Positions 2,610-26,762 of a DNA stretch of 64,000 bases are shown here, in pieces. Every line of letters begins with the position of its first letter. Within the stretch, counting starts at the first letter, position 1. The DNA comes from Mycolicibacterium gilvum. GTDB taxonomy: Bacteria; Actinomycetota; Actinomycetes; Mycobacteriales; Mycobacteriaceae. The position numbers and the translations under genes were made by a program. The notes under the pieces are model-generated. The model saw only the letters and a program-made list of their open reading frames with translations, was not told the DNA's origin and did no database searches. The stretch is from NCBI RefSeq assembly GCF_900454025.1, contig NZ_UGQM01000001.1, positions 1,984,001 through 2,048,000 of the forward strand, written 5' to 3'.

Positions 2610-3806
2610 TTACCGCCTGCCCCAGTCCCACGGGGGCATCGTCGACAGGTCCTGATCGCCGACCCTGGTCTCGCCCCAGTCCTTGTACAGTTCGATCTCC
2701 CACGCGTCGCCGTCCGTACCGATGGGCTCGGCGCCCAGGCATTCTCGCAGCATCGCCGAGTGGGTGACCACGACGAGCTGAGTCCGTGTCGCCGCCTCGC
2801 CGATGAGGCGGGCCAGGGGTGGCACCAGGTCGGGATGCAGTGAGGTCTCCGGCTCGTTGAGCACCATCAGTGACGGGGGTTGCGGGCTCAGCAACGCGGC
2901 CGCCCAGAGCAGGAAACGCAATGTGCCGTCGGATATCTCGGCGCTGCGCAGCGGTCTCAGCATGCCGCGCTGGTGCAACTGGAGATCGAACAGGCCGTCG
3001 GTGATCGCGACCGACACCGTCGCACCGTCGAAGGCGGCATCGACGGCGCGCGCGAGATCACCGTTCCCGGTCTCCAAGATCGTCTGGATCGCCGCGGCCA
3101 GGTCGGAGCCGTCGTCGGCCAGAACCGGTGTGCGGGTACCGACCTGGGGTCGACGTGCCGGGGCATCGGCGTCGGCGCGGAAGCCGTCATAGAAGCGCCA
3201 GTTGCGCAGCCGCTCACGGACCATGGCGAGCTCGGGCGACGCACCCGCCCAATCGGTCAGCACGCTGCGGTGTGCGGGAAGGTTGCGCGCGAGTTCGTCG
3301 AAACCACGGCCGGTGTCCGAGGCGACCTCGACCATGCCGCGCACCCGGCGCACCAGGGTGGTGGTGCTGCGGGCCACCGGGCCGGCGAACACGAGTTCCC
3401 GTTTGATCTCGGGGTCGCGTCCGAACGCGGTCTCGGTGGCCTGCGGCAGGCCGAGATCGATCAGGTAGCCGAAATCGTCACCGGCATAGCCGAGTTCGAT
3501 GGACACCGACCGGCTCCGGGGGCCGCCCTGCGCTGTTCCGGTGCGGCGCGCGCCACCGAGATGTTCGGGCCCGGCCCACAGTGCCGACGCGACTCCACCC
3601 TCGCGCGCGAACGATCCGATCACCTCGCCCCGGCCGCAGTCGGCGAGCAGCCGAAGGGCCCGGTACAGCGAAGACTTACCGGTGCCGTTGGCGCCGGTGA
3701 TGACGGTGAGCCGGCGCAGGGGCAGCACGAGGTCACGCAACGAGCGGTACCCACGGATGGCGACGGTCTCCAGCATGCCGTCGAGCGTATTGTCCGGCTC
3801 GGACAT
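2610..3806 (-). CDS. AAA ATPase, RecF/OLD-like (AAA_21, COG4637 type)
   Basis: Predicted soluble ATPase of 398 residues related to SMC/RecF/OLD-like ATPases. The N-terminus reads LETVAIRGYRSLRDLVLPLR, followed by Walker A GANGTGKS at residues 38-45. The C-terminal Walker B is LMVLNEPETSLHPDL, with Asn where most ABC-type ATPases have Asp, which I recall being common in this predicted-ATPase family. VVVTHS follows as the switch histidine. Start choice is uncertain: ATG 3806 gives MSEPDNTLDG before the core, and ATG 3776 would begin exactly at the conserved MLETVAIRGY; neither has a clear ribosome site. Role unknown; it is convergent with the SDR and lies just downstream of a GAF gene. Confidence 0.82.
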   Translation of the reverse strand: MSEPDNTLDGMLETVAIRGYRSLRDLVLPLRRLTVITGANGTGKSSLYRALRLLADCGRGEVIGSFAREGGVASALWAGPEHLGGARRTGTAQGGPRSRSVSIELGYAGDDFGYLIDLGLPQATETAFGRDPEIKRELVFAGPVARSTTTLVRRVRGMVEVASDTGRGFDELARNLPAHRSVLTDWAGASPELAMVRERLRNWRFYDGFRADADAPARRPQVGTRTPVLADDGSDLAAAIQTILETGNGDLARAVDAAFDGATVSVAITDGLFDLQLHQRGMLRPLRSAEISDGTLRFLLWAAALLSPQPPSLMVLNEPETSLHPDLVPPLARLIGEAATRTQLVVVTHSAMLRECLGAEPIGTDGDAWEIELYKDWGETRVGDQDLSTMPPWDWGRR

Positions 3807-17255: not shown

Positions 17256-20200
17256 ATGTCACGGATTTTTCTCAGCCATTCCAGCCGTGACACGCGCCAG
17301 GCGATAGCCCTCAAACAATGGTTGATCGAGCAGACGCCGCCGCTGGCAAACGAGATATTCCTCGACGTAGACCCCGGTTCAGGCCTACGGGCAGGTACAC
17401 GGTGGAAGGATGCGCTACGCCAGGCAAATGCGCGCTGCGAAGCGGTCATTTGTTTGCTTTCGAAAAATTGGGAAGCGTCACACGAATGCAAAGTCGAATA
17501 CCGAACTGCTGAGAATCTCAACAAGCAGATATTCGTCGCACGGCTCGAACCGTCCACCGGCGACGATCTGACGTCCGAATGGCAACGCTGCGACCTCTTC
17601 GGCGAGGGGCCGACGACGGCGATCGACACCGGACAGGGCGACCCTGTCGAATTCGCGACAGCGGGCCTCTACCGCCTACGCGACGGCATTCGGGGAGCCG
17701 GCATCGGTGCGGCGTCGTTCGTCTGGCCGCCACCTCGTGATCCCGACCGTGCCCCGTACCGCGGGTGGGAACCTCTCGACGAAGCAGACGCCGCGGTGTT
17801 CTTCGGACGCGATGCGCAGATCGTGCGCGCACTCGACACTGTGCGCGGTATGCGCCTGTCCGGTGTCACGTCGATGTTCGTCGTACTGGGTCCTTCAGGA
17901 ACCGGAAAGTCATCGTTCCTACGGGCCGGTCTGCTCCCTCGGCTACGGCGGGAGGACCGTCGTTTCGTCGTCATGAACATCGTGCGACCCGAGCGAAACG
18001 TGCTCAGCGGAGACGCGGGCTTCGCGGCGGCCCTGTGTGCCACCCGGTCTGAGTTCGGGCTGTCCGAACCGAGTCTGGGAGAAGTCAAGGCAGCGTGCCT
18101 CGCAGGCGACGCGGACCGGGTGATCTCGATGCTGGCCGAGTTGCGGCAGGTGGCCGCCGACCGCTTACTGCAACGGGGCGGCGACGGCGATGAGCTGGTG
18201 GCGCCGACGGTGATCCTCCCTCTCGATCAGGCGGAGGAGCTGTTCAACGCGGAGCACGCCGAGAGCTCGGAGCGATTCCTGGATCTGCTTCGGCAGATCC
18301 TCGACGCCGCCAATGGCTCTGATCTGGGACTCGCTGTGGCGGCGACGATTCGCACCGATCGCTTCGAGATCATGCAGACACACCCGCGACTGGCGGGGCT
18401 GGGAACTGCGCTGTTCGACGACCTCAAGCCGATGCCGGCCACACAGTTCAAGGAAGTGATCGTCGGCCCGGCGCAACGCTCGACGGAGGGTGGCCGGCCC
18501 CTGCAGATCGCTGTGGACCTGGTGGATCGCCTTCTGGCCGATGCCGGTAGCGGCGCCGATACGTTGCCGATGCTGGCGCTGACGTTGGCACGGCTGTACA
18601 CCGATTACGGCAGCACCGGCGAGCTCACCTTGCGTCAGTACGAGGGCATGGGCGGGATGAACCGCGTGGTGCAGTCGGAAATCGACGAGGTGCTCTCACG
18701 CGACGCCGTGCAGCGCACGCGACAATTGCAGGCGCTGCGAAGCGCTTTCATCCCATGGCTCGCGACGATCAACCCGGACAACGGCCAGCCGATGCGCAGA
18801 GTGGCGCGTCTGTCGGACCTGCCGCAGGACAGCCGCGGCCTCATCGACGCTCTTGTCGCCAAGCGCCTGATGGTCAGTGACGTCCGCGGCGGAACCACCG
18901 TCGTCGAGGTGGCGCTGGAGAGTCTCCTGCGGCAGTGGAGCGAGCTGGCAGGTTGGCTGCGCGACGAGCGCAAGGACCTGCGTGACGCCGACGACCTGAT
19001 CCGTGGTGCGGCGGCCTGGCGTGGGAGCAACCGCAATCCCGCGTGGCTGTTGGAGGGTACGCGTCTGTCCGAAGCCGCCGCACTGGTCAACCGGCCCGGG
19101 TTCCGCGAGCGTCTGCGGGAGGTCCACGACTATCTGGATGCATCACATCGGCGCCAACAACAGGAGCGCGATGACGAGGAGAAGCGCCGGCGCGGCGAGC
19201 TGATCGCGGCGCAGGAGCGTGAGCAGGCGGCTCAGGAACGTGCGCGGTACGCCCAGGAGCAGCAGCTGACCGCCGAGCGGCATGCGACGACCTTGCGCAA
19301 GCGCGGACGGGTGTTGCGCTCTGTGCTGGCGCTCACCGCGGTCGTCGCCGTCGTCGCGGTGGCAGGTCTGGCCTGGGCGGTCTCGGCCAACAGCAGGGCT
19401 GCTGAACGGTTCAGACAGGCAACCAGTTTGCGGCTGACATCCGACAGCCTGGCCATGATGAGGGGCACCCGCCCCGGTGGCGACATCCAGGCGATTCAGC
19501 AGATGGTCGCGGCGAGAGCATTGACCTCCTCGCCGGACGACTACGCGTTGTCGACCATCGTGGAGCAGGACAACAACACCACGAAAATCATTCCGGCACA
19601 GGGCGTCATGGCCGGAGTCTCCTACAGTCCCGACGGCAGCCGGCTCGCGGCCTCGGGGGCAGACGGATACGTGCGCGTCTGGGACGCCGAATCCGGCCAG
19701 CCGGTCGTCGATCCGATTCCCGATCACCAGGGGGTATCCGAGATCGCCTTCAGCCCCGACGGCCAGGCGCTGGTGACTGCCGACCGAGACGGCGTACTCC
19801 GGATCTTCGACGCCGGCGACTTCAGCGTGGATCACGAGATCGACACCGGCACAGAGAATCTCAGCTCCATAGCGTTCACCTCCGATGGTTCCCGATTCGC
19901 GACGATCGGCAACGATCGCGTCATCCAGGTGGTCGACACCGACACCGGTGACCCGGTACGTGAATTCCCCTCCGGACATCAGGGATACGTCAGCGAGCTG
20001 GCTTTCAGTCCCGACGGAGCCCTGCTGCTGTCGGGAAGTGAGGACGGGACACTCCAGATGTGGGACGCCGAGGCCGGGACGGCGATCGGTCCTCGGATCG
20101 AAACCGGGGGGATGGTCGCAGATGTCGCATTCCGGCCGGACGGACGAAGGTTCGTCAGTAGTGGAAACTCGGTCATCTTGTGGGACACACAGACTCGCAA

Positions 20201-21455
20201 ACCCATCGGAGATCCGTTGCAAGGCCACGTCAACGCGGTGACAACGGTATCCTTCAGTCCCGACAGTCAAGTCCTGGCGACCGGCAGCGCGGATGCGACC
20301 GTCAGGGTCTGGGACGCGGACACGGGTGCTTTCCTGTGGAACGTCATGTACGGCCACGAGGGCCGGATCTGGGGTCTCGTCTACAGTCCCGACGGGCGGC
20401 ACATCGCCAGCGCCAGCAGTGACGGCACGGTGCGGATCTGGAACCCGCTGGGGAGTCAGCCGCTGCTCGGACACACCGCCGCCGTTCGTGACCTGAGCTA
20501 CAGCCCCGACGGCGAGTTCATGGCGAGCGCCGGCGAGGACGGCACCGTGCGTCTGTGGGATCCGGACACCCATCAGTTGCTGGGCAGGCCGCTGGATGCC
20601 GGGGTTCCGCTGTACGCACTAGATTTCAGTGAGGACAGCTCGACTCTGGTTGCCGGCGGCGACGGAGGAACCGTCGTTCTGTGGAACATGGGATCCCGCC
20701 AAGTCGCCGGCAGGTACGAGACCGGGCGCGCAGGTGCCATCCGAACGCTGGAGTTCGAGGACAAGGGCGAACGGTTGAGCGTTCTGGACTGGGACGGCGT
20801 GGCCAGCGTCATGGACATCGACGGGCAGCAGGTCGGTGAAGAGGTCCCTGATGTCGAAGCGATAACTTTGTCGCCCGCATGGAATCTCGCGGCCACGAGC
20901 AGGATGAGCGAGAACAACGTCTACGTGCTTCCGATCGGTGGGGATTCGCAGGGGTCGGAAGTGACCTTGGAAGGCCATACGAACCGGGTGGGCCGATTGG
21001 TGTTCAATCCGGACGGCAGCCTGCTGGTCTCGGCGAGCGACGACACCACGGTGCGCAGGTGGAACCCCGCGACAGGTGAGTCTGTCGGCGGACCGTTGGC
21101 TGGACACACCGACGAGGTCCTCGACCTCGCCTTCAGCCCCGACGGTACGCGCCTGGTCACCGGCAGCGCGGACACTACGGCCAGGCTCTGGGACGTCGCG
21201 ACCGGCCGCCAGATTGCCGACCCCTACGTGGGACATACCGAACACGTGACGAGCGTCGCGTTCGACCCCGACGGTGGGAGCTTCGCGACCGGCAGCCGGG
21301 ACGGTACGGTGCGCGTGCGATCCGTGACGGCCAGCCCGGAAATGTTGTGCGCCAAGTTGACCGCGAACATGAGCCACAAGCAGTGGGACGTATGGGTATC
21401 TCCCGACATCGATTACGTCCAGGCGTGTCCAGGCCTCCCGATCGCTCCGGACTGA
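17256..21455 (+). CDS. TIR - nSTAND NTPase - transmembrane - WD40 protein (putative conflict/defence sensor)
   Basis: A 1399-residue multidomain protein. Residues 1-115 are a TIR domain (RIFLSHSSRD start; Glu81 in ECKVEYRTAE aligns with the NADase catalytic Glu). Residues 180-560 are an nSTAND-type ATPase with FFGRD, Walker A GPSGTGKSS (212-220) and Walker B VILPLDQAEELF (319-330). A charged coiled coil (632-680) and a transmembrane helix (about 688-708) follow, then 14 WD40 blades (about 777-1385), enough for two seven-bladed propellers. By analogy with STAND proteins, the propellers would sense a trigger, the ATPase oligomerise and the TIR consume NAD or make a signal. The 5' end is AT-richer than its surroundings. 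The patatin gene follows after nine bases. Confidence 0.9.
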   Translation: MSRIFLSHSSRDTRQAIALKQWLIEQTPPLANEIFLDVDPGSGLRAGTRWKDALRQANARCEAVICLLSKNWEASHECKVEYRTAENLNKQIFVARLEPSTGDDLTSEWQRCDLFGEGPTTAIDTGQGDPVEFATAGLYRLRDGIRGAGIGAASFVWPPPRDPDRAPYRGWEPLDEADAAVFFGRDAQIVRALDTVRGMRLSGVTSMFVVLGPSGTGKSSFLRAGLLPRLRREDRRFVVMNIVRPERNVLSGDAGFAAALCATRSEFGLSEPSLGEVKAACLAGDADRVISMLAELRQVAADRLLQRGGDGDELVAPTVILPLDQAEELFNAEHAESSERFLDLLRQILDAANGSDLGLAVAATIRTDRFEIMQTHPRLAGLGTALFDDLKPMPATQFKEVIVGPAQRSTEGGRPLQIAVDLVDRLLADAGSGADTLPMLALTLARLYTDYGSTGELTLRQYEGMGGMNRVVQSEIDEVLSRDAVQRTRQLQALRSAFIPWLATINPDNGQPMRRVARLSDLPQDSRGLIDALVAKRLMVSDVRGGTTVVEVALESLLRQWSELAGWLRDERKDLRDADDLIRGAAAWRGSNRNPAWLLEGTRLSEAAALVNRPGFRERLREVHDYLDASHRRQQQERDDEEKRRRGELIAAQEREQAAQERARYAQEQQLTAERHATTLRKRGRVLRSVLALTAVVAVVAVAGLAWAVSANSRAAERFRQATSLRLTSDSLAMMRGTRPGGDIQAIQQMVAARALTSSPDDYALSTIVEQDNNTTKIIPAQGVMAGVSYSPDGSRLAASGADGYVRVWDAESGQPVVDPIPDHQGVSEIAFSPDGQALVTADRDGVLRIFDAGDFSVDHEIDTGTENLSSIAFTSDGSRFATIGNDRVIQVVDTDTGDPVREFPSGHQGYVSELAFSPDGALLLSGSEDGTLQMWDAEAGTAIGPRIETGGMVADVAFRPDGRRFVSSGNSVILWDTQTRKPIGDPLQGHVNAVTTVSFSPDSQVLATGSADATVRVWDADTGAFLWNVMYGHEGRIWGLVYSPDGRHIASASSDGTVRIWNPLGSQPLLGHTAAVRDLSYSPDGEFMASAGEDGTVRLWDPDTHQLLGRPLDAGVPLYALDFSEDSSTLVAGGDGGTVVLWNMGSRQVAGRYETGRAGAIRTLEFEDKGERLSVLDWDGVASVMDIDGQQVGEEVPDVEAITLSPAWNLAATSRMSENNVYVLPIGGDSQGSEVTLEGHTNRVGRLVFNPDGSLLVSASDDTTVRRWNPATGESVGGPLAGHTDEVLDLAFSPDGTRLVTGSADTTARLWDVATGRQIADPYVGHTEHVTSVAFDPDGGSFATGSRDGTVRVRSVTASPEMLCAKLTANMSHKQWDVWVSPDIDYVQACPGLPIAPD
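19584..21400 (+). repeat. Fourteen WD40 coding repeats
   Basis: Roughly 120-130 bp units, each encoding a blade of the form (V/I)xxxxFSPDGxxLxxxSxDGTVRxWDxxTG. Blades 7, 8, 12 and 13 are closest to consensus. The second and third (about 19735-19960) and the tenth and eleventh (about 20730-20940) are degenerate. The copy number of 14 suits two seven-bladed propellers. Not a CRISPR or intergenic repeat. Confidence 0.85.
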
Positions 21456-21464
21456 GGGGCTGTC

Positions 21465-22613
21465 GTGTCCGCGAAGACCCGTGACGATCACCTGTTCGGT
21501 GCCGGTCCCAAACGCATCCTTGCCCTCGACGGCGGGGGTATCCGGGGCGCGCTCACGCTGGGCTACCTCGGCCGGATGGAGGACATCCTGCGGGACCGGC
21601 ACGGGGGCGACCCCGAGTTCCGGCTCTGCGACTACTTCGATCTCATCGGCGGCACCTCCACCGGTTCGATCATCGCCACCGGGTTGGCGCTCGGCTTCGC
21701 GGTGGACGAGCTGGTGGATCTGTACCGATCGCTGGGGGAGAAGGTTTTTGACAAGAGCAGGCTGCGTCTCGGCCTGTTCGGCGCCAAGTTCCCGAAGGAG
21801 CCGCTGCTGCGCGCCCTCGACACCCACTTCGGAGACATGACACTCGGCGGCGACGAACTACGCACCGGTCTGATGATCATGACGAAGCGACTGGATACCG
21901 GGAGCCCCTGGCTGCTGCACAACAATCCTCGCGGCAAGTACTTCGACGGCGACGGTGGCAGCTATCCGAATCGGGATCTGTTGCTGCGCAATATAGTCCG
22001 TGCAAGCACCGCGGCGCCGCACTATTTCGAGCTGGAGACGCTGCGCATCGCACCCGGTGTCACCGGGGCATTCGTCGACGGCGGTGTGAGCCCGTACAAC
22101 AATCCGGCGCTTCAAATGCTGATGCTGGCGACGTGCAGCGGCTACGGACTGAACTGGCGGTTCGGTGCAGAGAACCTGATGCTGGTGTCAGCGGGCACCG
22201 GACACCGTCCGCTGCGGATGACGGCGGCGCAGGTGACGGATATGCCCGCGGTTGTCCTTGCGGCACAGTCGATGTTGTCGATCATGGCCGATGCGAACTG
22301 GCTGGGGCAAGCGGTGCTGCAATGGCTCGCGTCGAGTCCGACATCGTGGCAGATCGACAGCGAGATCGGTGATCTGCGGGACGATCGGCTGGGGCCCGGT
22401 CCTGATCTGATCACGTATCAGCGGTACGAGGTCTCACTCGAACCGAACTGGTTGCGTGACACGCTCGACGTGCACATCGATGACGAGCAGTGCGACGCGC
22501 TCTACGCGATGGACAACCCCAAGAATCTGACCCGGCTCGCGTCACTCGGTGTGACCGCGGGCGCTGTCCAGGTGCAGCCTGATCATTTCCCGCCGGGGTT
22601 CGACCTGTTGTGA
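21465..22613 (+). CDS. Patatin-like phospholipase
   Basis: A 382-residue patatin-family lipase, CapV-like in overall layout. The oxyanion loop is LDGGGIRG (residues 21-28), the nucleophile elbow is GTSTG with Ser65, and the dyad Asp205 is in FVDGGVSPYNNP. These are the complete Ser-Asp catalytic residues, so membrane phospholipid hydrolysis is expected. No signal peptide or transmembrane helix, so the enzyme acts from the cytoplasm. Start is GTG 21465, with GAGGGG nine bases upstream in the gap after the TIR-STAND gene, indicating one operon. Patatins are common effectors of abortive-infection systems; here it may be the effector or a second effector of the TIR-STAND sensor. The 3' end overlaps the convergent RyR gene by 31 bp. 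Confidence 0.92.
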   Translation: MSAKTRDDHLFGAGPKRILALDGGGIRGALTLGYLGRMEDILRDRHGGDPEFRLCDYFDLIGGTSTGSIIATGLALGFAVDELVDLYRSLGEKVFDKSRLRLGLFGAKFPKEPLLRALDTHFGDMTLGGDELRTGLMIMTKRLDTGSPWLLHNNPRGKYFDGDGGSYPNRDLLLRNIVRASTAAPHYFELETLRIAPGVTGAFVDGGVSPYNNPALQMLMLATCSGYGLNWRFGAENLMLVSAGTGHRPLRMTAAQVTDMPAVVLAAQSMLSIMADANWLGQAVLQWLASSPTSWQIDSEIGDLRDDRLGPGPDLITYQRYEVSLEPNWLRDTLDVHIDDEQCDALYAMDNPKNLTRLASLGVTAGAVQVQPDHFPPGFDLL

Positions 22614-24952
22614 TCCGCGAGGGCATAGCGTCGTGTGAATTCGTCACCCGGCACCGCCCAGACGTCCCCGTGGTCCCCTTGCACGATCCATGACCCCGGT
22701 GGGGCGGTGATCGTTCCCTCGAGGGTGCGTACGCTCTCACCGTCGTTGGCCGGCCGGGCCAGGACGGTGCCGAGCCTGCGCCATCGATTCCCGCCGATAT
22801 GCCGGTGGGTAGCGCGGAAGATGTCGTCGCGCACCGACCACGAATCGGTCCCGCTCTCCTCGCGCACCTCCCAGTCGCCGGCGGCCGCGTGCATGGTGGA
22901 ACCGTCGTGCGCGGTCCACGTCCATGCAGTCGCACGCTGTTCGGCGATGACCGCCCCGGCGCGGCGGAACCGCTCCCAATGCGTACTCGCGTCGGAATGC
23001 GAGCGGTACCCGAGCTCGCGTAACTTCGTCAGCGTCGCAGCCAGACTCCTGAGAGCGGCAGCCACCATCGCCGGATCGGATTCGAGCTGCGTCCAATCGA
23101 TCAACTTGTCGTGCACCTTGGCCCGATCGTCGCGCCGGGGGCCGTGACGCCAACCGTGCCGGCGGTAGTAGCGACACCAGTCCTCATGCTCGGCGCGAGC
23201 CATGGCGGTGGCTGTGGTCAGGTCAAACCCCAACTGGCGCAGTTGTTCCTGAGGCTGAAGCCCGCGCAGGGCGACGGTGCTCACGCCGTCAGGCGGCTTG
23301 CCCCATGTGTTCCAGGTGTGGCCCCCGATCTTCTCGACCATCCACAAGGCGTTGCGGACCTGACGGCGGTTCGATTCGCGGTAGAACTCGCCAAGCTCTT
23401 CCCACGGCTCGGCCGCGGGTCCCGTGGCGCCGGATTCGGCGACATACCGACGGTGTATCAGGATGGCTGCGCGCTCCCACGCGTCGTGGGCCTGGCCGCC
23501 GGGAAGGTCGAGGCTGAGGCGATATGTGTACAGGCGGCCCACCACCGAAACCCTCTCCCGAGTGGCGTCTGCCCGGTGGTCGTGGACGTGGATCGTGGTG
23601 TCGGGCAGGCGCGCCGCGATCCTCGTCGCGGTGCTGCCATAATCGGTCGAGTCGGCGAAGATCAGCGCAGTCGATTGCGCATCGCCCTCGCCGACGAGCC
23701 GCAGAAGTGTTGCCACTGAGGGGGCTTCGTCCACCGCGACGATGTCTGCTTCTCGATCGGCGTGCCCCATCTGCGTAGCTGTGAATGCATAATCTCGCTG
23801 GTACTGCGTCGCGTCGGGCGCGAGGACGTGCAGCACAGGAAGTTCGTCGTCGCCGAGGTATTCGGCTTCGAGGCGACGCGTGAGCATATCCGCGCACAAA
23901 GCGGTTGTCAGCTGCGATGATCCGCAGACGAACAACCGGTCGACTCGTGGCCCCGTCAGCGTCCGATCGAGAAGGCGTCGTGCGGTCACCTCGTACAACC
24001 CGACGGTATCGGCCGCCCAACGGTTGTGCGCCCCTCCGAAATGCTGGGCGCGCCACGCAGCGGCCTGCCACGGGTCGTCGATCCGAACGACCAGTGGTAT
24101 CCGGAGCCGCTCATCCCCGCCACGCGCGGTGACAGCGCGGAGCCGCAGCAGGTTGGTCGATGGATCGGGGGCGAGTAGATAGAGCCGGTCCAGCTTGTCC
24201 CATACCGGCACTGCGAGAAGTTGTTCCGCGTCGTCGAGGTCGACGGCGACGATGCAGGCACCGGCGGTGCGGGCCCGCCGCGCATAGTCGGTTTCCGCAG
24301 AGCCGACGACGACGACCAGGGTGCCGGTACGGCCCATGGTGTGGGCGATCGCGGCCACCAGTGAGGAGGCGTCGTCATCCCCGCCGACCGCGACTGTCAC
24401 CGATCGGGACAACCGAAGGCGCAGCCGATCGAACTGAGAACGAAAAAGTGCCAGCGCAACGCCTGCTACTGAGGTGAACAGCGCGGCAAGGGCTGACAAT
24501 TGGGCGATGTTGAGCGCGACCGGCATGGGGGAGGGACATGAGCCGTCGGCGAGCGAGCGCGCCGGATCGCCGCCTTTCAGCAATGCGGCGGTCCAGAGCA
24601 GAGGCGTGAAGAAATCGGGATGGGTCTCGTCCTGACAGCGCCAGTAGGACGCGACGCCGAGAAGTGTGGTCGCGATCGCCAAGATCAGGACAATGGCGAC
24701 CGGAGTTCCGCCGCGCCGACCGCCGCTGGCCCGGACCAATACGACGGCCAGTGCGATATAGGCGATCACGACGATGCCCATCGTGACGGCCGAGTTCGGG
24801 GCGCCGAACCACCGCAGTTGCTCGGGCACGAGGTCGTGCACCTGCGGCCAGGCGGCGACTGCTGCCAGATAGCCCGTCAGACCGGCGACGATCATTGCCA
24901 GCACGTTGCGGATCACGACGGTGCGCGTCGATGACAGACTCGCAGTGCGCAC
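22583..24952 (-). CDS. Membrane protein with TrkA-N-like and RyR domains
   Basis: A 789-residue protein. Four hydrophobic helices lie at about residues 13-35, 55-75, 83-103 and 148-170. Two TrkA/RCK-like Rossmann regions follow (about 184-330 and 335-480; TGTLVVVVGSAETDYARRAR, then RLFVCGSSQLTTALCADML). A RyR domain at about 580-625 shows the hallmark spacing MARAEHEDWCRYYRRHGW, HGPRRDDRAKVHDKLIDW. The C-terminus has two PGxW/V modules near 690-780. RyR and TrkA-N domains are reported in nucleotide-dependent conflict systems, where RyR is proposed to bind a nucleotide-derived signal. It could be the signal receiver for the TIR enzyme, acting at the membrane. Start is GTG 24952. Convergent overlap with the patatin gene. 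Confidence 0.8.
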   Translation of the reverse strand: MRTASLSSTRTVVIRNVLAMIVAGLTGYLAAVAAWPQVHDLVPEQLRWFGAPNSAVTMGIVVIAYIALAVVLVRASGGRRGGTPVAIVLILAIATTLLGVASYWRCQDETHPDFFTPLLWTAALLKGGDPARSLADGSCPSPMPVALNIAQLSALAALFTSVAGVALALFRSQFDRLRLRLSRSVTVAVGGDDDASSLVAAIAHTMGRTGTLVVVVGSAETDYARRARTAGACIVAVDLDDAEQLLAVPVWDKLDRLYLLAPDPSTNLLRLRAVTARGGDERLRIPLVVRIDDPWQAAAWRAQHFGGAHNRWAADTVGLYEVTARRLLDRTLTGPRVDRLFVCGSSQLTTALCADMLTRRLEAEYLGDDELPVLHVLAPDATQYQRDYAFTATQMGHADREADIVAVDEAPSVATLLRLVGEGDAQSTALIFADSTDYGSTATRIAARLPDTTIHVHDHRADATRERVSVVGRLYTYRLSLDLPGGQAHDAWERAAILIHRRYVAESGATGPAAEPWEELGEFYRESNRRQVRNALWMVEKIGGHTWNTWGKPPDGVSTVALRGLQPQEQLRQLGFDLTTATAMARAEHEDWCRYYRRHGWRHGPRRDDRAKVHDKLIDWTQLESDPAMVAAALRSLAATLTKLRELGYRSHSDASTHWERFRRAGAVIAEQRATAWTWTAHDGSTMHAAAGDWEVREESGTDSWSVRDDIFRATHRHIGGNRWRRLGTVLARPANDGESVRTLEGTITAPPGSWIVQGDHGDVWAVPGDEFTRRYALADHNRSNPGGK

Positions 24953-24991: not shown

Positions 24992-25567
24992 TCAGCAGCG
25001 ATAGTCACCCGACAGCGTCGACCAGAACTCGACGGTCGCAACCGCGTCGACGGCGGCGGGCCCACCCGCGCCGAACTCGGACGTCACGTAGTCGGCAAGA
25101 TCGGCGCCGCGGACGACGACATCGGTGCGCACCACCGACAGCACCGGATGTCCGAACGATCCGCGACCGGCCGGCAGGTAGTGGTGTGAGCAGATCGGCA
25201 GCAGCATCGGCACACGCTCCAGCTGGTAGCGCGCGGTGCGCAGCGCGTGCTTCATCTGCGCGGGCCGCCGACCCCAGCTGTCATGCCAGAACCGGTTCCA
25301 CTCGACCGCGAACAGAATGCCCTCGGCGGGCAGGTGCAGCCGTTTGGTCAGGCTCCGGCGTCCCTCGTCGCGCCAATTCGGCCACGACCCGCCCGTGGGC
25401 AGGCCGGCCGCCAGGAACGCGCGATGGTCGTCGGCGAACTCGATGCCCAGGTCGGTCTCGGCACGGTCCAACTCGTCGTCGGACATGCCCCGCTCGATCG
25501 TCACCGCACCCAGCGCGGCGAGGCGCTGCGCGGCGTCGGCTCCGAGGGTGGCCCCGGCGTCGTGCAT
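24992..25567 (-). CDS. SMI1/KNR4 (SUKH) family protein
   Basis: A 191-residue protein with the SUKH pattern: RGMSDDELDRAETDLGIEFA, DHRAFLAAGLPTGGSWPNW, and ILFAVEWNRFWHDSWGRRP. SUKH proteins include immunity proteins of toxin systems as well as housekeeping scaffolds. The chosen start ATG 25567 lies 13 bp after the flavoprotein stop; the longer frame would overlap that gene. It is 39 bp upstream of the RyR gene on the same strand, so it may belong to that module or be an independent cargo gene. No toxin gene is adjacent. Confidence 0.75.
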   Translation of the reverse strand: MHDAGATLGADAAQRLAALGAVTIERGMSDDELDRAETDLGIEFADDHRAFLAAGLPTGGSWPNWRDEGRRSLTKRLHLPAEGILFAVEWNRFWHDSWGRRPAQMKHALRTARYQLERVPMLLPICSHHYLPAGRGSFGHPVLSVVRTDVVVRGADLADYVTSEFGAGGPAAVDAVATVEFWSTLSGDYRC

Positions 25568-25580
25568 CGGAGGTGCCAGA

Positions 25581-26762
25581 TCAGAAGCTGTGCTGCGGAC
25601 CCTGGGCCTTCTTGTACAGCGCCTTGAGCATCCGGTCACGGAACGCGGCGTTGTCGATCAGCTTCACCCCGGCCTCGGCCAGCTTCGGCTGCCCGATCAG
25701 CTTGTGCATGATGCGACCGCGGCGGTACTCCCGTCCCCACGCGGCCTCCATACGCAGCGCGTAGTTGGTGAAGTCGTCGGGACCGCCGTTCGTCAGGGCG
25801 GCGACGGCGCATTCGCCTGCGGCCAAACCGGATTCGAGCGCCTTGGAGATACCCGCTCCCGAGGCCGGCTTGCCCGCACCCAGCGAGTCGCCGGTGAACA
25901 GCACGCCTGGACGCCAGGGCGGCCATGCGGTGAAGCCCATGGGCAGGCGCCACGCGCGCACACTCTTGTTCTTCTTCAGCTCCTCGATGGGCGGAAGCTC
26001 CCATTCGCGCGGGAGCGTGCGCAGGAACTCGCCGAGGAACTGGGTGGCGTTGATGGACTGCCAGTTCTTGTAGCTGTTGACGTAGCCGAGTCCGATGTTG
26101 AAGATGCCGTCGCCCATCGGGAACACCCACCCGTAGCCGGGCAGCTGATCGCCTTCGAACAACAACTTCAGGTAGATGTCCAGCGAATCGGTGTCCGGAC
26201 GATTGGCCGGCATCTCCGAGCGGATCGCGATGGCCGAGTAGCCGTTGTATTCCGAGTCGATCTTGAGGGCCCGCTTGATAGGGGAGTACGCGCCGTCGGC
26301 GGCGATCACGGCGTCGCCGAGCACCTTCTCGCCACTCTTGAGGATCACGCCGACGACGCGTCCACTGGCGTCGAACTCCGGCCCGGCCACCTCGGCGCCC
26401 TGGCGGATTTCGGCCCCGGCGGACTCTGCGTGCTTGAGCAGCACCGTGTCGAGATGCTCGCGGCTGACGGTGTGGCCGTGGTCGGGCATCCCCGGACGCT
26501 TCGGGAACGACAGCTCCCACCGGCTGGGGCTGAACACCGTGACCCGGTTCACCCGGTGGTAGGTGGCCACCTCGTCGGCCAGGCCCATCTTCTGCAGGTA
26601 GCTGACGGCACGCGCCGTCAGGCCGTCGCCGCAGGGTTTGGCACGGGGGAACTGAGCTTTGTCCAGCACCACCACTTTGGCGCCGGTCTGTGCGGCCTGC
26701 CATGCGGCGGCCGACCCCGAGGGCCCTCCACCTGCGATGACCACGTCGTATCGCTGCGTCAT
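25581..26762 (-). CDS. Geranylgeranyl reductase family FAD-dependent oxidoreductase
   Basis: A 393-residue flavoprotein. The N-terminal FAD Rossmann motif is DVVIAGGGPSGSAAAW (residues 5-20), followed by the family block FPRAKPCGDGLTARAVSYL, the second nucleotide motif DAVIAADGAYSPIKRAL, and GVLFTGDSLGAGKPASGAGI near residue 290, a variant of the usual GDAAG motif. Members reduce isoprenoid double bonds, for example MenJ on menaquinone, but this protein is clearly distinct from MenJ (Rv0561c) as I recall it. The start ATG 26762 has an AGAGAG ribosome site. It heads a minus-strand run with the SUKH and RyR genes and is divergent from the TetR gene at 26917. Confidence 0.87.
   Translation of the reverse strand: MTQRYDVVIAGGGPSGSAAAWQAAQTGAKVVVLDKAQFPRAKPCGDGLTARAVSYLQKMGLADEVATYHRVNRVTVFSPSRWELSFPKRPGMPDHGHTVSREHLDTVLLKHAESAGAEIRQGAEVAGPEFDASGRVVGVILKSGEKVLGDAVIAADGAYSPIKRALKIDSEYNGYSAIAIRSEMPANRPDTDSLDIYLKLLFEGDQLPGYGWVFPMGDGIFNIGLGYVNSYKNWQSINATQFLGEFLRTLPREWELPPIEELKKNKSVRAWRLPMGFTAWPPWRPGVLFTGDSLGAGKPASGAGISKALESGLAAGECAVAALTNGGPDDFTNYALRMEAAWGREYRRGRIMHKLIGQPKLAEAGVKLIDNAAFRDRMLKALYKKAQGPQHSF

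What the first reader, a model, noticed from the sequence alone, without database searches (positions are those of the whole stretch)
17256..24952. Putative conflict module: TIR-nSTAND-TM-WD40 sensor, patatin phospholipase and TrkA/RyR membrane receiver
Three adjacent genes carry domains each associated with nucleotide-signalled immunity: a TIR domain with an apparent catalytic Glu81 on a STAND ATPase with two WD40 propellers, a catalytically complete patatin, and a membrane protein combining TrkA-like Rossmann modules with a RyR domain. A working model is that the propellers detect a trigger, the STAND ATPase oligomerises, TIR makes or consumes a nucleotide, and the patatin and RyR/TrkA proteins attack or depolarise the membrane. 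The layout matches none of the named systems I know: there is no CD-NTase, so not CBASS, and no ThsA-like SLOG protein, so not Thoeris. Domain calls are read from sequence; the model is inference.
Basis: partly seen in the sequence, partly recalled or inferred. Interest (0 to 1): 0.9.

Follow-up and report, generated by a model that had tools for sequence, protein, structure and literature searches.

The report
TIR receptor paired with RyR-domain membrane protein
In this mycobacterium, a membrane-anchored TIR protein sits beside a membrane protein that joins a channel-type control ring to a domain found in animal calcium-release channels; the same pairing recurs in relatives with different TIR partners, suggesting an undescribed NAD-signal-to-membrane switch, perhaps used against phages.

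Summary
In detail: TIR-nSTAND1-TM-WD40 (17256-21455 +), patatin (21465-22613 +) and a four-TM, tandem-RCK/TrkA-fold, RyR-domain protein (22583-24952 -). They are not one operon: the RyR gene is convergent and overlaps the patatin gene by 31 bp. Comparative genomics changes the picture. The core is TIR plus RyR protein; the patatin is optional. In 70 of 80 RyR loci a TIR gene lies within 2.7 kb (3 more are cut by contig ends); a Pfam-based check finds TIR within 8 kb of RyR in 37 of 42 genomes (0.25 expected). TIR partner type (TIR-PknH_C, TIR-nSTAND-WD40, TIR-WD40) changes at least 9 times on the RyR tree, 5 without long-branch rows. The linkage recurs outside the genus. 69 of 71 linked TIR proteins carry a TM helix, so most sensors probably lie outside. 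The TIR glutamate is kept, as are three RyR residues that hold cADPR in a phage relative; that relative's catalytic aspartate is not conserved. Best model (inferred): a membrane TIR receptor makes an ADPR-type signal that the RyR domain binds to gate the RCK/TM protein. Ion conduction, ligand and phage defence are untested. Ten literature searches found no description.

The parts
17256..21455 (+). TIR-nSTAND1-TM-WD40 protein (1399 aa), proposed membrane receptor and signal-making enzyme
17265..17606 (+). TIR domain (residues 4-117); Glu81 conserved in 118 of 119 aligned rows, window included (1 gap)
17754..19040 (+). nSTAND1 NTPase (residues 167-595), Walker A GPSGTGKS at residue 212, Walker B-like stretch at 320
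19323..19379 (+). predicted single TM helix (residues 690-708), net charge +6 on its N side, +2 on its C side
   Evidence: Kyte-Doolittle, own script
19578..21350 (+). WD40 repeats (about residues 775-1365), probably extracytoplasmic sensor
   Evidence: topology inferred
21465..22613 (+). patatin-like phospholipase (382 aa; Ser65 in GTSTG, DGGGIRG, DGG), optional second effector
   Evidence: linkage
22583..24952 (-). RyR-domain membrane protein (789 aa): 4 TM + tandem RCK + RyR + C-terminal beta repeats, proposed signal-gated effector
24410..24952 (-). membrane part (residues 1-181): helices 6-34, 55-75, 83-103, short helix 115-125 between invariant Cys106 and Cys139, long helix 145-181 running into the RCK
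   Evidence: no clear PDB match alone
23513..24403 (-). tandem RCK/TrkA-type Rossmann domains (residues 184-480)
23069..23212 (-). RyR (Repeat12, PF02026) core (residues 581-628) with invariant His589, Trp592, His614
22619..22975 (-). C-terminal tandem beta repeats (residues 660-778; weak, sub-threshold PGDYG similarity), a separate ORF in some relatives

Best explanation
This is a two-component signalling module with an optional third gene. A membrane-anchored receptor (cytosolic TIR and STAND ATPase, TM helix, probably external WD40 propellers) is triggered by a signal at the envelope; the STAND/TIR part assembles and TIR converts NAD+ into an ADP-ribose-type messenger. The RyR domain of the neighbouring membrane protein binds that messenger and, through its tandem RCK ring, changes the state of a four-TM membrane part, most simply opening an ion path and halting the cell. 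The patatin, where present, is a second membrane-damaging effector. Shown by computation: domains, linkage, partner exchange, conserved residues, fold of the RCK and RyR parts. Inferred: messenger, gating, ion flow, the trigger, and defence as the purpose.
Against: The membrane part alone has no clear PDB match, is modelled with moderate confidence, and no GYG-type potassium filter is seen in residues 104-145. 7 of 80 RyR loci have no TIR gene nearby (one of them cut upstream by its contig end), and G236 has 11 TIR matches but none beside its RyR gene. G339 has a TIR-STAND gene with a patatin fragment but its RyR gene is on another contig; TIR-STAND relatives also occur in genomes without RyR (G224, G130). 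Outside the genus, in 3 of the 5 loci scanned by Pfam (L216, L225, L213) the RyR partner has no TrkA_N match, and no TM was found in the L216 and L225 RyR proteins; the L213 TIR protein has no TM next to its TIR. Rows are related by descent and the 80-locus and 42-genome sets overlap (several share contig lengths), so the binomial figure is not a real probability. The TIR HMM used on the 80 loci was seeded from RyR loci (the Pfam check was not). In the window the RyR gene is convergent, not co-transcribed with the TIR gene. RyDEP is a phage protein; in the papers seen nobody has shown that this host family binds anything.
Confidence: 0.6

Rival explanations
1. Envelope or osmotic stress signalling rather than immunity: the same biochemistry, but the module adjusts ion flow when cell-wall sensors (PknH_C, propellers) detect damage.
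For: The commonest partner is TIR-PknH_C, mostly at one conserved chromosomal site in many species, not in an island; sensors appear to be outside the cell.
Against: Patchy presence (72 of 198 genomes), repeated partner exchange, association with STAND, patatin and, in one genome, LSDAT, presence on a plasmid: typical of conflict systems.
Confidence: 0.3
2. The RyR protein is the off-switch: it destroys or sponges the TIR product to protect the host, like phage RyDEP, and the patatin (or NAD+ loss) is the effector.
For: RyDEP and two tested phage relatives do this to Thoeris signals (PMC13232231).
Against: No conserved acid at the RyDEP D117 position in any of three registers: D or E at residue 631 in 22 of 58, at 632 in 1, at 633 in 0; a sponge needs neither TM helices nor an RCK ring; 70 of 80 RyR loci lack a full-length patatin.
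Confidence: 0.12
3. The TIR protein kills by emptying NAD+; RyR protein and patatin respond to loss of NAD+ or to ADP-ribose as by-standers.
For: Some bacterial TIR defence proteins are NADases (SpbK, start of the abstract of PMC12847820); GsuK, an RCK channel among the fold matches, has been solved bound to NAD and to ADP (titles).
Against: A plain NADase would not need a constant adjacent RyR partner through 5 to 9 changes of TIR architecture.
Confidence: 0.12
4. The genes are neighbours only because they share a hot spot or island.
For: Eleven mapped loci (window included) share one ancestral site beside the same FAD-reductase-like gene, so many rows are one event.
Against: Several unrelated sites, orientations and partner types, other genera and a plasmid keep the pairing.
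Confidence: 0.04

Closest known systems
Thoeris (types I and II)
   Same: TIR enzyme with kept Glu beside an effector predicted to read an ADPR-type signal
   Different: No SIR2-SLOG or macro-domain ThsA; the receiver is RyR-RCK-TM; the TIR is a membrane receptor with STAND/WD40 or PknH_C. SIR2-SLOG and macro ThsA are from the title and start of the abstract of PMC11204291; the TM part of type II is recalled.
Phage RyDEP and other RyR-domain sponges (PMC13232231, main text parts 1-3 of 6 and passages read)
   Same: PF02026 domain; H75, W78 and H100 equivalents kept
   Different: Host gene next to TIR; fused to TM and RCK; catalytic D117 equivalent not conserved. The parts read do not describe bacterial TIR-linked RyR receptors.
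RCK-gated channels and transporters (TrkA/TrkH, KtrAB, GsuK, MthK, Slo1, CASTOR)
   Same: Tandem RCK ring, long helix joining the last TM to the RCK, a short helix between the last two TMs
   Different: No potassium filter motif seen; RyR domain added after the RCKs; the membrane part alone is unmatched
CBASS phospholipase CapV
   Same: Among the closest solved patatins (CapV 8zr9 E 3.8e-18; best hits named Patatin 2.3e-19), PADLOC phospholipase effectors
   Different: Below the NCBIfam CBASS_lipase cut-off (112 against 200 bits); no CD-NTase in the tested genes
Toll-like receptors (recalled, no call)
   Same: Single-pass protein with a TIR inside and a sensor outside
   Different: TIR at the N end, propeller or PknH_C sensor, predicted enzyme; no homology claimed beyond TIR

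Membership tests
Thoeris | TIR protein with catalytic Glu | tested here: met
   Glu81 in the SxxCxxE motif; E in 118 of 119 aligned rows, 1 gap; enzyme activity itself not testable here
Thoeris | ThsA effector (SIR2-SLOG or macro type) | tested here: not met
   No such Pfam/NCBIfam/PADLOC domain in the three genes
Thoeris | TIR gene next to an effector gene | tested here: met
   TIR near RyR in 70 of 80 loci; 37 of 42 genomes by Pfam
Thoeris | ADPR-type messenger activates the effector | not testable with these tools
   RyR ligand residues kept, binding not measured
CBASS | CD-NTase beside the effector | tested here: not met
   None among the genes scanned between 15693 and 25639 (7 proteins; 4 proteins)
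CBASS | CapV-type phospholipase | tested here: inconclusive
   Patatin core similar; 112.2 bits against a cut-off of 200
RyR/Repeat12 domain (PF02026) | Profile match over the curated cut-off | tested here: met
RyR/Repeat12 domain (PF02026) | Ligand residues H75, W78, H100 of RyDEP | tested here: met
   H589, W592, H614 in 58 of 58
RyDEP-type glycosidase | Catalytic dyad H75 and D117 | tested here: not met
   H kept; no conserved acid at the D117 position in three possible registers
RCK/TrkA-gated channels | Tandem RCK fold | tested here: met
RCK/TrkA-gated channels | Pore domain fold | tested here: inconclusive
   Whole-model alignments to GsuK from residue 82 have rmsd 12-13 A; the membrane part alone has no clear match
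Potassium channels | GYG/GFG-type selectivity filter | tested here: not met
   Conserved segment 104-145 lacks it
STAND NTPases (nSTAND1) | Profile and Walker motifs | tested here: met
   224 bits against 27.1; Walker A at 212, Walker B-like at 320

The most novel reading that the evidence does not exclude
Bacteria use single-pass TIR receptors with external sensors that, like a minimal Toll receptor, make a cyclic ADP-ribose messenger which opens a membrane channel through an RyR domain: a bacterial version of the cADPR-to-ryanodine-receptor axis. It would also be a natural host target for mycobacteriophage RyDEP.
Probability: 0.35. Interest if true: 0.95.

Novelty: new variant of a known kind. 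Interest (0 to 1): 0.8.

Why it matters
TIR enzymes that send ADPR-type signals are known, but receivers are few. A host family that joins an RyR domain to an RCK ring and TM helices, usually near a TIR gene and with exchangeable sensors, would be a new receiver class. It would place the animal RyR domain in a bacterial cADPR pathway, a link that PMC13232231 raises as a question for animal RyRs, and would give a candidate for the mycobacterial pathway that phage RyDEP counters.

Tried and rejected

A count of mine was corrected: the 15 label changes include changes to and from 'no TIR'; among TIR partner types alone the least is 9, or 5 with nine long-branch rows not counted. The patatin of L116 proved to be a 32-aa remnant.

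Rows dropped or added: the 80 loci gave 78 predicted RyR genes plus L161 and L184 added from six-frame ORFs, plus the window, L107, L095 and L023 (84 rows); the L184 row had its first 150 residues cut off and the L023 row was limited to 700 residues. In one search the 42 RyR-positive genomes include three with fragments or pseudogenes (G258, G265, G277) and one whose partner is split over contigs (G227), all counted as misses. For A1, 58 of the 120 listed proteins were aligned (523 were found). For the unlinked-TIR control, 20 of 61 unlinked TIR matches were taken, mostly the better-scoring ones, not at random. The 71 TIR hits include one doubtful 546-aa hit in L163 (E 1.8e-5, 5 TM segments) and leave out L161, L184 and L107.

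Full report
What is there. The window lies in a 6.43 Mb genome whose close relatives by protein bear names of the Mycobacterium group (Mycobacterium, Mycolicibacterium, Mycobacteroides). One search gives the three ORFs at the stated places: 17256-21455 (+, 1399 aa), 21465-22613 (+, 382 aa) and 22583-24952 (-, 789 aa). The first two are 9 bp apart on one strand; the third is convergent and overlaps the second by 31 bp. Neighbours look ordinary: VOC, cupin and HTH genes upstream, and on the other side a FAD-reductase-like gene, a TetR-like gene and an nrdF-like gene (names from inspection of translations, not profile-tested).

Domains. TIR_2, nSTAND1, WD40, Patatin and RyR are all over their Pfam cut-offs. 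Among solved proteins the patatin is nearest to entries named Patatin (2.3e-19), CBASS phospholipase (1.4e-18) and CapV (3.8e-18), but it is below the NCBIfam CBASS_lipase cut-off. Motif checks: Glu81, Walker A 212, Ser65. The TIR glutamate column reads E in 118 of 119 TIR-STAND rows, window included (one gap), 16 of 16 STAND neighbours in the 80 loci, 48 of 48 TIR-PknH_C and 6 of 6 other linked TIR proteins that aligned.

Ligand residues. PMC13232231 (preprint, May 2026; [quoted passage not shown] The chain 35tm aligned fits that numbering with one extra residue (my inference that 35tm is RyDEP). The window's H589, W592 and H614 align with H75, W78 and H100 and are invariant in 58 of 58 rows; at the D117 position the three possible columns hold D or E in 22, 1 and 0 of 58. 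The prediction is a binder without that enzyme activity.

Linkage. RyR relatives occur in 72 of 198 genomes of the genus, TIR-STAND relatives in 33 of 198, and patatin relatives in 12 of 198. All six other genomes with a full-size close patatin (66-82% identity: G273, G374, G214, G269, G238, G007) have it beside a convergent RyR gene; in G007 a transposase gene lies between. G339 has a patatin fragment after a TIR-STAND gene, with its RyR gene on another contig. A scan of named genome contigs gave 80 RyR loci, the best 80 of 108. With a TIR HMM seeded on nine sequences from RyR loci, 70 of 80 have a TIR gene within 2.7 kb (L161 and L184 needed six-frame ORFs; in L163, L169 and L188 it is three or four genes away); three (L117, L118, L164) have a STAND partner cut off by the contig end; seven (L119, L136, L140, L174, L181, L183, L185) have none, L174 being cut upstream. 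Because that HMM came from these loci, I repeated the test with Pfam TIR_2 over whole genomes: 54 of 98 genomes have TIR; of 42 RyR-positive ones, 39 have TIR somewhere and 37 within 8 kb of RyR, against 0.25 expected from density. The five misses are G227 (partner split over contigs), G236 (11 TIR matches, none near) and three fragments or pseudogenes. 15 of the 56 RyR-negative genomes have TIR. The two sets share species, so they are not independent tests.

Partner exchange. Linked TIR proteins are TIR-PknH_C (same strand or divergent), TIR-nSTAND1-WD40 (convergent, divergent or co-directional, with a full-length patatin in 10 of 80 loci and a remnant in one) and TIR-WD40. On a quick tree of 84 RyR proteins all labels together change at least 15 times, but this counts loci without TIR as a label; among TIR partner types alone the least is 9, and 5 when nine long-branch rows are also left out. 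Partners are thus clustered by descent but have been exchanged repeatedly. The window's nearest rows are a STAND locus and then a Mycobacteroides TIR-WD40 locus. Several joins of long branches in that tree are unsafe.

Outside the genus. In 396 genomes of the phylum, 20 have PF02026, 14 of them outside the genus. TIR_2 occurs in 10 of these 14, and within 10 kb of RyR in 6: G738, G740, G692 (both copies), G544, G015 and G390. Pfam confirms TIR next to TrkA_N-RyR in G738 (TIR-PKD-PD40) and G740 (overlapping genes, TIR-Septum_form), and TIR-PNP next to a 100-aa RyR protein in G015; in G692 and G544 the RyR protein has no TrkA_N match and no TM was found, so the membrane effector is not universal. 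Four of the 14 have no TIR match at all. A Rhodococcus plasmid carries a 37% relative with WD40 and TIR genes downstream.

Topology. By hydrophobicity, 69 of 71 TIR hits in the 80 loci have at least one TM helix (46 of 48 PknH type, 16 of 16 STAND, 7 of 7 other, one of those a doubtful hit), against 9 of 20 unlinked mycobacterial TIR proteins, one of those weak. In the window the N-side flank is +6, so TIR and STAND should be inside and WD40 outside. PknH_C is an extracellular domain by its Pfam title. The Fisher value ignores relatedness.

Mechanism. The data fit a membrane TIR receptor feeding an RyR-gated membrane protein. Steps shown: genes, domains, residues, linkage, exchange. Steps inferred: messenger identity, binding, gating, ion flow, purpose. 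Immunity is favoured over envelope homeostasis because of patchiness, exchange, STAND, patatin and plasmid carriage, but the conserved TIR-PknH_C locus argues for a broader role.

Known or new. It works like Thoeris but fails its ThsA criterion. Ten literature searches found no description of the pair (calls listed under Tried and rejected). I rate it a new variant of a known kind, with a more novel reading open.

Noticed in passing
L165-L168, L172 (L094 and L093 appear to be the same contigs as L165 and L172): The RyR gene is interrupted between its RyR domain and C-terminal beta repeats (about residue 651): the STAND-patatin pair lies there on the other strand. In L094 a separate ORF for the missing end lies beyond it, and one search shows the same for the genome of L093; in L165-L168 and L172 the match stops at residue 651 or 657.
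   Followed up: partly
L103 (7188-9305 and 9305-9721): The RyR protein's C-terminal beta repeats are a separate downstream ORF, suggesting they can act as a separate subunit.
   Followed up: no
L023 (G102 C110): A dense locus: 924-aa RyR protein in which part of the RyR region is repeated, a stand-alone 160-aa RyR gene, a kinase-like gene (weak match), patatin (about 40%), LSDAT_prok (SLOG of TRPM), an unmatched 522-aa gene and two TIR-STAND genes.
   Followed up: partly
L017 9366-10652: A DDE transposase gene lies between patatin and RyR in a relative of the window locus.
   Followed up: no
L114: The FAD-reductase-like site is empty of RyR/STAND, while an RyR plus TIR-WD40 pair sits about 4 kb away before an nrdE-like gene: an apparent empty-site and moved-cassette example.
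   Followed up: no
L253 (Rhodococcus qingshengii plasmid NZ_CP054208.1): RyR relative on a plasmid typed as mobilizable, beside DUF4062, WD40 and TIR genes.
   Followed up: partly
window 2613-3806 (-): AAA_21 (putative AbiEii-type) ATPase gene elsewhere in the window; no link to the module was looked for.
   Followed up: no
window 24992-25639 (-): Small gene directly upstream of the RyR gene on the same strand with no Pfam, PADLOC or NCBIfam match; similar genes lie in two other sampled loci (cluster of 3).
   Followed up: no
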